Below are positions 2,667 to 5,262 of a DNA stretch of 64,000 nucleotides, one piece after another (positions within the stretch are counted from its first letter, which is position 1; the number at the start of each line of letters is the position of its first letter). Below the pieces are notes generated by a model. The model was given only the letters and a program-made list of their open reading frames with translations, was not told the DNA's origin and did no database searches. This DNA comes from Gaetbulibacter sp. 4G1. GTDB lineage: Bacteria; Bacteroidota; Bacteroidia; Flavobacteriales; Flavobacteriaceae. Position numbers and translations under genes: made by a program. Where the stretch lies: assembly GCF_002741945.1 (NCBI RefSeq), contig NZ_MDVN01000009.1, positions 124,001-188,000 on the forward strand, written 5' to 3'.

Positions 2667-4301
2667 ATGGCAAGATTACAAATTCTAGGACATGCTTTCA
2701 TTAGCTACGAATATTATTTAAAAGATATTTATTGGACAGAAATGTCTCAATTAACCATTAAAAAATTTGGTAAAAAAACATATTCAGGTCATAATGAAGT
2801 TGAAGAAATATTGCTTTTTTGTTTTGATTACCTAGTTACCAAATTCAAAGAACTTATATTTTCAGAAACTGACTTTACTTTTTTCATGTATGTTTTTTGG
2901 TTACACGAAGAATCTATTAACATTTATCTTAAATATAATCAAGGAGAGAGCCTATACCCAATTGATGAAAATGAGTTTGCAAGAAGCAGAAGAATATTAA
3001 AAGCAATTTTAGAGCAAGGATGTGATATTGATTTAAACTGGGGAAAGTTCCCAAAGAATTCAGAAGAATTAGAAAGACTTGATGATAAAATTCAACATCT
3101 TCTATATGTTGGTACTTGGCTTTACCATTTTGCAGACCATATTGCATATCAAAAAATGGTTGAAGATTACAATAAGGTCGAATTTGATGATAATGATTTA
3201 TTGATAGTAGATTGGAACTATCATTATGGAGTAGCATATAATTCACTATTCCCGAATATAGGTCAAGAATACGAAAGGGGTGCTTATGAATTAGAAATTG
3301 TCCCAGAGCTAAAACAAAAAATTAATGAATGCTTTAAAATTGATTATGATTGGGCAGGAGCTGTTATATTTGAGATTAAAAAGCATCACAACCAAAAAGA
3401 CCCGTCACTTCAAACTATTGAGCCTTATGTTCTTCCTAAGAACCTATCTCATCAATTTAATATTCCAGAAGGCGAAGCTAAATTATTTTATGATGGCTTA
3501 ACAATTTCAAGAGAAAACAAAATGTCCTTAGAAGATTTAATTCTAAAACCTTATTCTATGGATAGATTTATGTACAGACCTATATTAGTTTATAAAATAG
3601 GTGGTGTAGATAGAGCTTTGGTAGGAGAACAAAAGTACCCTGAAAGTTTAATGGTACTAGCTACTAATGCACTAAAATGGAATTCTTTACCCAAGGAATG
3701 GTTGATGAATAACTGTATGAAAACTTTTTTACAACAGAAAGGAAACGAGCATGATAAACTATTAGAAGATGAAGTAGAACAGAAGTTATTAGAAAAAAAA
3801 ATAAAATTTTGTAGAAATATAAAATCATTTAAACAACATAAAGCTAATAACATCAATATAAATAACTCTCTTTGTGGTGAAATTGATTTTATAATAGTAA
3901 ATGAAAAACTGCAAAAACTAATTGTAGTAGACTGCAAATATAATAAAGCTCGTTATGAAGCCGTAGGTTACAGAACCGATGACACTAATTTTAAGAAGAA
4001 ATATGAGCCTAAAATGTTCAAAAAGCATCAATGGGTGTCAAATAATTTATCTGCTGTAACACAGCATCTACAAATTATTTATAATGACAATAAAATCAAT
4101 CTTAATGGCTTCAATGTTGAAACTGTATTTTTTATTAATACACCTACCTTTTATATGTTCAATGGGGATTACAAAGCCATAACTTTAAGTCAAGTTGAAG
4201 CCTATCTAGATGGAAACTATAAATATGATTTACTTGTGATTGAGTATGAATCTCAGGAAATAAAGCACCCCTTTTTTAGAAAACCAAATAACCATGAATA
4301 A
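2667..4301 (+). CDS. PD-(D/E)XK nuclease-like protein, candidate defence gene
   Basis: This 544-residue soluble protein has no signal peptide. Its N-terminal ~370 residues are helix-rich and unrecognised. The C-terminal third shows a PD-(D/E)XK-like core: E405 and D407 in CGEIDF, then a hydrophobic strand ending in D422-C-K424 (IVVDCKY), followed by a helix with TQHLQ. That spacing matches the catalytic sheet of restriction-type nucleases. The next gene overlaps it by 8 bases and begins with an McrB-like N-terminal segment, so this was probably one half of a two-gene nuclease/GTPase-type defence operon. The catalytic assignment is from pattern only. The protein itself looks full length. Confidence 0.55.
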   Translation: MARLQILGHAFISYEYYLKDIYWTEMSQLTIKKFGKKTYSGHNEVEEILLFCFDYLVTKFKELIFSETDFTFFMYVFWLHEESINIYLKYNQGESLYPIDENEFARSRRILKAILEQGCDIDLNWGKFPKNSEELERLDDKIQHLLYVGTWLYHFADHIAYQKMVEDYNKVEFDDNDLLIVDWNYHYGVAYNSLFPNIGQEYERGAYELEIVPELKQKINECFKIDYDWAGAVIFEIKKHHNQKDPSLQTIEPYVLPKNLSHQFNIPEGEAKLFYDGLTISRENKMSLEDLILKPYSMDRFMYRPILVYKIGGVDRALVGEQKYPESLMVLATNALKWNSLPKEWLMNNCMKTFLQQKGNEHDKLLEDEVEQKLLEKKIKFCRNIKSFKQHKANNININNSLCGEIDFIIVNEKLQKLIVVDCKYNKARYEAVGYRTDDTNFKKKYEPKMFKKHQWVSNNLSAVTQHLQIIYNDNKINLNGFNVETVFFINTPTFYMFNGDYKAITLSQVEAYLDGNYKYDLLVIEYESQEIKHPFFRKPNNHE

Positions 4302-5262
4302 ATATGAAATACCTCTTCATGAAGACGAAGATATACTGAATACTTTTTTAGAAAAATGGACTATTCCTAATATACATACAATGACTTTACAACAGTACAC
4401 TGACGTAGATAATGTTGACACCTTTACTTACTGGGTTGAAAATGGGACTAGTCAACTAGGTAGTATTAGAGGTAGAATTGGCAGCCCAAAATTTGGGTTA
4501 TATAAGATAAAATCCACCGCTCCAATAACAGGACACCTGTTTTGTTCAAAATGTGGAAATAAATTAACGAGCTATGAGGTGAAGAAAAAAGTACTTCATT
4601 ATTATTGTTGTCAAAAATGCAAAGGCGTTAGCATAAATGCTAACACCACCAAAAGAGCCAAGAAAATTGGAGTTCACGAAATGTTTCTTGAACTTCTTGC
4701 TTCTTATCAATTAGATAATCAATTATTAGAGCCATTTAAAGCACAATTAAAGCTTTCATATAAGAATATGCATCAAGAAGATTATGAAGTGGAACAAGCA
4801 ATTAAAAAGCGTTTAAATGAAGTAAATTCAAAGTTGGAAAACTTAACTGAAAAATTAATTGAAGGAGTTATAGATAATGACACCTACGGCAAGTATAAAT
4901 CTAAACTAGAAAAAGAATTATCTGAATTAAATGCAGAAATAAATATTGATGACAAAAAAATATCTAACCTAGATAATTTTATTAATTCAATTTTGGAGTT
5001 TTCTCAGAACGTCAGTAATCACTGGTGTTCCGGGGACTATGAAACAAAAGTGAAGATACAAGAATTGGTATTTCCTGATGGTTTAGTCCTAAACCCTGAA
5101 AAAAGGCAATATCTAACCAAAAAAGTTAATCGATTATTTGAGCTTATTTCAAGTATATCAAGGGATTCAAGAGTAGACAAAAAGAAAAAAGTCAGCAAAA
5201 ATGCTGACTTGTCTTCTCTAGTAGCGGGAACTGGACTCGAACCAGTGACCTTCGGGTTATGA
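4294..5262 (+). CDS. Chimera: McrB-like N-terminus fused to serine recombinase C-terminus
   Basis: Residues ~15-72 (LEKWTIPNIHTMTLQQY, TYWVE, LGSIRG, KFGLYK) resemble the segment that precedes the AAA+ domain of McrB-like restriction ATPases. From residue ~78 the chain changes to the C-terminal part of a large serine recombinase: a zinc ribbon (CSKCGNKL, then CCQKCKG) and a long coiled coil (~165-235). Neither the AAA+ domain nor the recombinase catalytic domain with its active-site Ser is present. The last ~28 residues read through the tRNA terminator and the tRNA antisense strand (VAGTGLEPVTFGL). A single in-frame deletion joining two genes explains this. It is unlikely to be functional as either parent. 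Confidence 0.65.
   Translation: MNKYEIPLHEDEDILNTFLEKWTIPNIHTMTLQQYTDVDNVDTFTYWVENGTSQLGSIRGRIGSPKFGLYKIKSTAPITGHLFCSKCGNKLTSYEVKKKVLHYYCCQKCKGVSINANTTKRAKKIGVHEMFLELLASYQLDNQLLEPFKAQLKLSYKNMHQEDYEVEQAIKKRLNEVNSKLENLTEKLIEGVIDNDTYGKYKSKLEKELSELNAEINIDDKKISNLDNFINSILEFSQNVSNHWCSGDYETKVKIQELVFPDGLVLNPEKRQYLTKKVNRLFELISSISRDSRVDKKKKVSKNADLSSLVAGTGLEPVTFGL
5181..5210 (-). terminator. Terminator of tRNA-fMet
   Basis: Arms AGTCAGCA (5190-5197) and TGCTGACT (5202-5209) with a 4-base loop are followed on the minus strand by a T-rich run. It lies 12 bases after the tRNA 3' end. The same bases are translated on the plus strand as the tail of the chimeric recombinase frame. Confidence 0.7.

What the first reader, a model, noticed from the sequence alone, without database searches (positions are those of the whole stretch)
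4294..5262. In-frame chimera of an McrB-type N-terminus and a serine recombinase C-terminus
Residues ~15-72 look like the pre-AAA+ segment of McrB-like ATPases; from ~78 on the protein is a recombinase zinc ribbon plus coiled coil. Neither catalytic domain is present. A single deletion from inside an McrB-like gene to inside the downstream recombinase gene would produce exactly this. It records the loss of a defence ATPase and of the element's mobility in one event, or a new small Zn-ribbon protein in birth.
Basis: partly seen in the sequence, partly recalled or inferred. Interest (0 to 1): 0.75.

Follow-up and report, generated by a model that had tools for sequence, protein, structure and literature searches.

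The report
Defence-gene/recombinase deletion scar at a tRNA
This small gene is most likely the scar of a DNA deletion that welded the start of a bacterial anti-phage gene onto the tail of a mobile-element recombinase next to a tRNA gene; it is a clear fossil rather than a new working protein.

Summary
The chimera is real. The 322-aa ORF at 4294-5262(+) joins ~71 residues of a defence-protein N-terminal module to the zinc ribbon, coiled coil and C-terminus of a serine recombinase; the switch lies at ~4504-4524. The first part stops mid-module (eight aligned relatives run on), and only this genome combined both halves in the searches. That supports a deletion scar over a stable fusion.

McrB as the lost gene is not shown: the module also fronts ~350-aa nuclease-like and PD-T4-1 proteins. 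The closest relative is a 351-aa nuclease-like protein (50%); a weakly supported tree leans that way without rejecting McrB (AU p=0.29).

The recombinase family ends antisense inside tRNA 3' halves (21 of 29 other loci); three of five regions read have BREX or type I restriction genes nearby. Tails without a catalytic domain occur at 5 of 29 other loci, three directly at tRNAs. This tail's branch is shorter than its full-length sister's, so the event looks recent. No second attachment-site copy was found in the assembly, so 'one event' is not shown.

The parts
4294..5262 (+). chimeric ORF, 322 aa (P0001)
4294..4506 (+). N-terminal part (res 1-71): first half of a defence-protein N-terminal module; the start aligns with starts of relatives
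4504..4524 (+). junction interval (res 71-77); 'YK' occurs here in both parent families, so the exact base cannot be fixed
4522..5262 (+). serine recombinase C-terminal part: zinc ribbon (C84, C87, C106, C109), coiled coil, native C-terminus
5189..5210 (-). terminator-like hairpin plus T run downstream of the tRNA, inside the last codons of the ORF
   Evidence: 3 terminator-like sites found in 4100-5500, 0.5 expected in shuffles
5219..5263 (-). attachment-site core: 3' half of the tRNA, the stretch present at both ends of a relative's element in G364 (45-46 bp exact)
   Evidence: no second copy in the own genome with up to 3 mismatches
5221..5294 (-). tRNA-Met (cat) used as integration site
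2667..4301 (+). 544-aa PD-(D/E)XK-like gene (PDDEXK_11 just under its cut-off); its stop overlaps the start of the chimera by 8 bases
1260..2553 (+). two overlapping genes of unknown function in low-GC DNA, possible cargo

Best explanation
A deletion scar, made in one or more steps. A defence gene that starts inside the end of the PD-(D/E)XK gene lost everything after codon ~71. Illegitimate recombination fused it in frame (a one-in-three chance) to the zinc-ribbon/coiled-coil tail of the serine recombinase that abuts the tRNA. Shown: both parent families, the mid-module cut, absence of both catalytic parts, no second genome with both halves among those searched, a tail without faster evolution, and the tRNA/att anatomy. 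Inferred: the deletion itself, translational coupling to the upstream gene, and that the 322-aa product is inert because half a module precedes a recombinase tail with no Resolvase or Recombinase domain. What most likely still works is the DNA, not the protein: the 3' end of the ORF is the 3' half of the tRNA (the only copy in the assembly) followed on the other strand by its likely terminator. Deletions reaching further would break that tRNA, which would explain why recombinase tails survive there.
For: Halves belong to unrelated families. The N module continues for ~150 aa in eight aligned relatives but is cut here after ~71. Only the own genome has both halves: 395 order genomes, 249 family genomes (halves searched apart), 4 genus genomes. 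Tails without a catalytic domain recur at 5 of 29 other loci with >=1,467 bases upstream held. P0001 tail branch 0.262 vs 0.430 for the full-length sister: recent. Terminator-like hairpin 5210-5189(-). Full-length relatives stand near BREX (L049) and type I RM genes (L102, L104) in three of five regions read.
Against: The frame is open over 322 codons and the four zinc cysteines remain, as a selected gene would have. No intact parent arrangement was found in any of the 20 recombinase-bearing regions searched. No strains of the same species were held to date the event. The one NG86 value for P0001 vs L008 (dN 0.38, dS 1.18) shows constraint, but most of that history precedes the fusion.
Confidence: 0.8

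Rival explanations
1. Two-step scar (a variant of the best explanation, not exclusive of it): the recombinase tail was already a solitary relic at the tRNA, and a separate defence cassette beside it later lost its end and fused to the tail.
For: Tails without catalytic domain in other genomes, three of them directly at tRNAs; no second att copy in 124 kb upstream or genome-wide with up to 3 mismatches; congeners lack the tail.
Against: The tail shows no faster evolution, so it was not an old relic; defence genes near this recombinase family were seen in three of five regions read.
Confidence: 0.35
2. A retained small protein: the zinc ribbon and coiled coil bind related recombinases or their att site at the tRNA and block excision or the entry of competing elements (dominant-negative).
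For: Zinc ligands and coiled coil intact, no accelerated evolution; tails without catalytic domain recur.
Against: The Pfam Recombinase domain that precedes the zinc ribbon in L008 is missing; several tails elsewhere carry stops or are only 50-120 aa, as decay predicts; a recent event explains the open frame.
Confidence: 0.05
3. A stable natural domain fusion, inherited as one gene.
For: In frame, plausible start, overlapping the upstream gene.
Against: N module cut in its middle; no homologue of the same architecture in the genomes searched, in plasmid or phage records, or in viral contigs (a scan that reaches close relatives only).
Confidence: 0.04
4. An assembly error joined two loci.
For: Draft genome in 25 contigs; reads not available.
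Against: Junction lies mid-contig; each half has one match in the genome and together they form one open frame.
Confidence: 0.04

Closest known systems
Large serine recombinase, sister L008 in G384 (Resolvase + Recombinase + zinc ribbon)
   Same: 56% identity over residues 63-322, identical last 24 residues, ending in the tRNA antisense
   Different: P0001 lacks the Resolvase and Recombinase domains that L008 has
N-module proteins of ~350-373 aa with nuclease-like ends (L117 of G012, L163/L128 of G124, L164 with HNH)
   Same: Best match for residues 8-73: 50% identity to L117; tree neighbours, with low support
   Different: P0001 has neither the second half of the module nor a nuclease domain
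McrB-type AAA_5 ATPases with the same N-terminal module (L050, L051, L118, L004, L006)
   Same: 38-45% identity over the same stretch; an annotated McrC-family gene next door in L004, L006 and L179
   Different: No AAA domain and no McrC hit among the seven proteins scanned here; grouping with them is worse in the tree but not rejected
PD-T4-1 (PADLOC family)
   Same: Profile match to residues 16-70, E 1.5e-6
   Different: PD-T4-1-type relatives (L121-L124, L156, L174) form their own branch (support 99); L122 and L156 end in a NOV_C domain

Membership tests
Large serine recombinase | Resolvase catalytic domain | tested here: not met
   No Resolvase hit in P0001; N-terminal 290 residues of 14 relatives match nothing catalytic in the window or the 20 kb before it
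Large serine recombinase | Zinc ribbon plus coiled-coil C-terminal region | tested here: met
   56% identity to the L008 C-terminus, four cysteines kept; Pfam zinc-ribbon hit below its cut-off
McrB-type ATPase | AAA_5 domain | tested here: not met
   No AAA hit in P0001; present in L050, L051, L118, L004, L006
McrB-type ATPase | N-terminal module specific to McrB | tested here: inconclusive
   Module shared with nuclease-like and PD-T4-1 architectures; tree undecided
PD-T4-1 | Module plus C-terminal NOV_C domain | tested here: not met
   P0001 matches profile positions 34-106 of 383 only; no NOV_C hit
Integrative element at a tRNA | Direct repeat of the tRNA 3' part at both ends | tested here: not met
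   One copy only in the own genome with up to 3 mismatches; relative G364 has two, about 6.8 kb apart
Working gene | Purifying selection across the junction in strains | not testable with these tools
   One genome per species is held

The most novel reading that the evidence does not exclude
Recombinase tails left at tRNA genes are kept by selection: as DNA they supply the tRNA's 3' half and terminator, and as protein the zinc ribbon/coiled coil acts as a decoy that blocks competing tRNA-integrating elements; the chimera is one such tail that captured the start of a defence gene.
Probability: 0.06. Interest if true: 0.65.

Novelty: new member of a known kind. Interest (0 to 1): 0.3.

Why it matters
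It is a readable record of how a mobile defence island can decay: a defence gene and a recombinase collapse into one open frame while the tRNA that hosts the element stays intact. It warns that small 'recombinase zinc-ribbon' or 'McrB-like' proteins beside tRNAs can be scars. It also points to a recombinase family found at tRNAs, near BREX and restriction genes in some of the genomes read here.

Tried and rejected
McrB as the certain parent: rejected as unproven, because the module is shared by three architectures and the tree is undecided. In one search one row (L178) was a spurious 13-residue match; it was dropped and the tree repeated without it. AU p for the McrB grouping was 0.154 with it and 0.286 without it.

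Intact parent arrangement: 20 regions holding a related recombinase or tail (3 to 20 kb each) were searched for the N module and the PD-(D/E)XK protein; none had either at E 1e-3. PD-(D/E)XK relatives: 1 other of 296 phylum genomes, and the same contig again in the genome collection, by two conserved patterns. In that relative no gene of this kind follows, so it did not reveal the lost partner.

Viral contigs: no relative of P0001, the PD-(D/E)XK protein, L117 or L128 (single-protein scans, close relatives only). Phage records: none at E 0.01.

Left border of the element: within the stretches fetched, congeners G524 and G533 align from contig 129218 (window 5218) onwards and not before it; G300 aligns from 129610 on that side, has no tRNA in the fetched stretch, and aligns further away with 26.8-50.2 kb of the own contig in inverted order. 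A homologue of a gene upstream lies about 2 Mb away in G533, with stops. The border was not found. dN/dS was saturated or failed for most pairs and is not used; recency rests on branch lengths alone.

Structure prediction of P0001 was not run: the machine was busy at each of four requests.

Full report
What is there. The ORF at 4294-5262(+) encodes 322 aa without a stop. Its start overlaps by 8 bases the end of a 544-aa PD-(D/E)XK-like gene (2667-4301; PDDEXK_11 21.9 bits, cut-off 23.7). Its end lies inside tRNA-Met(cat) 5221-5294 on the other strand. No ORF of 60 aa or more lies on the other strand of this interval. A search of the own genome with P0001 found this place only.

The first half. 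Residues 8-73 match a module seen in defence proteins. The best match is L117 (G012, 351 aa, 50% identity, E 1.7e-16), then L050 (G318, 825 aa, AAA_5, 45%, E 1.9e-14), then L128 (G124, 373 aa, 43%, E 3.5e-13), with further AAA proteins after these. PADLOC's PD-T4-1 profile hits residues 16-70 (E 1.5e-6) and hits all eight relatives scanned (E 2e-20 to 1e-32). The eight relatives aligned carry the module on through a conserved second half of about 80 residues; P0001 leaves the alignment after residue ~71. Two of those eight, L052 (270 aa) and L005 (138 aa), are themselves short proteins. So P0001 holds half a module, not a whole domain.

Which gene was lost. The module occurs in three settings: McrB-type AAA proteins, with an annotated McrC gene next door in L004, L006 and L179; proteins of about 350-373 aa with a nuclease-like C-terminus (HNH in L164; L117 and L163 read by eye as PD-(D/E)XK, without a Pfam hit); and PD-T4-1-type proteins, two of which (L122, L156) were scanned and end in NOV_C. 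A tree of 23 module sequences puts P0001 beside the nuclease group, with branch supports of only 23-75 there. Forcing it with the McrB group (short L052 and L005 included) costs 8.2 lnL units (AU p 0.29), and with PD-T4-1 7.0 (AU p 0.30). Sixty-five residues do not decide.

The second half. Residues 63-322 match the C-terminal part of L008, a 549-aa recombinase (56% identity, E 1e-100). In full-length relatives the alignable part starts between residues 59 and 80; one weak row (G202, a 524-aa frame) starts at 50. The clear change of parent is residues 71-77 (window ~4504-4524). No catalytic part was found: with the first 290 residues of 14 relatives as queries, the single match (E 0.09) is window 4483-4590, the zinc-ribbon border itself.

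The recombinase family and its site. Of 29 other loci held from the family scan, 21 have a tRNA on the opposite strand within 80 bases of the end of the tail: Met, Arg, Leu, Lys, Asn. Where that is so the last codons of the recombinase run into the antisense of the tRNA 3' half (seen). In G364 a 46-bp exact copy of this stretch lies about 6.8 kb away, as expected for the two att copies of an element. It was the only one of 20 regions with a second copy longer than 14 bp in the bases held. In L049 and L102 the recombinase ends with nearly the same core but is followed by other DNA, not by the tRNA. Of five such regions whose ORFs were listed, three have defence genes near the recombinase: L049 BrxA, BrxB, BrxC, PglX; L102 and L104 type I methyltransferase and specificity subunits. 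That these lie inside the same element is inferred; their left ends were not mapped.

Chimera or natural fusion. In 395 genomes of the order, 81 (own included) have a match to P0001, and only the own genome matches across both halves; the others match the recombinase part or, in three genomes (G012, G498, G084), the N part (at most 5 candidates per genome were scored there). Searching the halves apart in 249 family genomes gave 27 with the tail and 5 with the N part, the own genome included in each and the only one in both lists. The three congeners have neither. Phage records: none; plasmids: 4 records, each with one half only.

Age and decay. On a tree of 24 tails, P0001's branch (0.262) is shorter than that of its full-length sister L008 (0.430). 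Nothing suggests long neutral decay, so the event is recent on that scale, or the tail is still constrained. For a recent event an open frame is expected without selection on the chimera.

Tails as a recurring leftover. Seven of the 29 other loci have a tail without a catalytic domain in the bases held; two of these lie at contig ends (L028, L033), leaving five. Of the five, L011, L015 and L017 abut a tRNA, and longer stretches around these three (11.6, 14.0 and 12.5 kb) also lack it; L036 has a tRNA-Met somewhat further off; L016 ends at a contig end. L011's match contains 2 stops. The window's tail holds a terminator-like hairpin for the tRNA strand at 5210-5189, and the att core, i.e. the 3' half of this tRNA, occurs once in the assembly. 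A deletion reaching past it would hit that tRNA, which gives a simple reason why tails remain. This is inference.

One event or two. The att core has no second copy in the own genome with up to 3 mismatches. Either the left end of the element is gone, rearranged or unassembled, or the tail was already alone when the defence gene was cut. In the stretches fetched, G524 and G533 align with this contig only from the tRNA onward and have other genes beside it, which suggests an integration hot spot.

Literature. The name PD-T4-1 belongs to the E. coli defence screen of PMC9519451 (recalled, with the term count); the passages I saw describe the screen and PD-T4-10, not PD-T4-1 itself. Searches on serine recombinases, tRNA genes and defence or genomic islands gave listings only: 30 papers, 12 listed; none; 7; 2. 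That recombinases often lie next to anti-phage genes is already stated in the abstract start of PMC12529663. None of the listed titles describes this chimera or the tails; that is not proof that they are unpublished.

Verdict. The wider, more interesting point is the set of tRNA-abutting recombinase tails, which deserves a systematic count.

Noticed in passing
L008-L036 (family scan): A serine recombinase family whose gene ends run antisense into the 3' half of several tRNAs (Met, Arg, Leu, Lys, Asn); 21 of 29 other loci abut a tRNA.
   Followed up: partly
L049:8133-19000: Full-length sister recombinase near a BREX set (BrxA, BrxB, BrxC, PglX); its att core is followed by other DNA, not by a tRNA.
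   Followed up: partly
L117:8330-9382, L163:5402-6520, L164:5533-6600: Proteins of 351-373 aa joining the McrB/PD-T4-1 N-terminal module to a nuclease-like C-terminus; Pfam names only the HNH of L164; NCBIfam was not run on them. Possible single-chain restriction-type nucleases.
   Followed up: partly
window 2667-4301: PD-(D/E)XK-like 544-aa protein with only one relative found (33-34% identity, a Balneolaceae MAG).
   Followed up: partly
L066:1-1601: In congener G524 the same tRNA borders other genes, by eye a helix-turn-helix protein and a primase/helicase-like one, at a contig end: a possible integration hot spot.
   Followed up: no
window 5189-5210: A terminator-like hairpin for the tRNA strand doubles as codons of the recombinase tail (within KKVSKNADLSS, identical in P0001 and L008).
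   Followed up: partly
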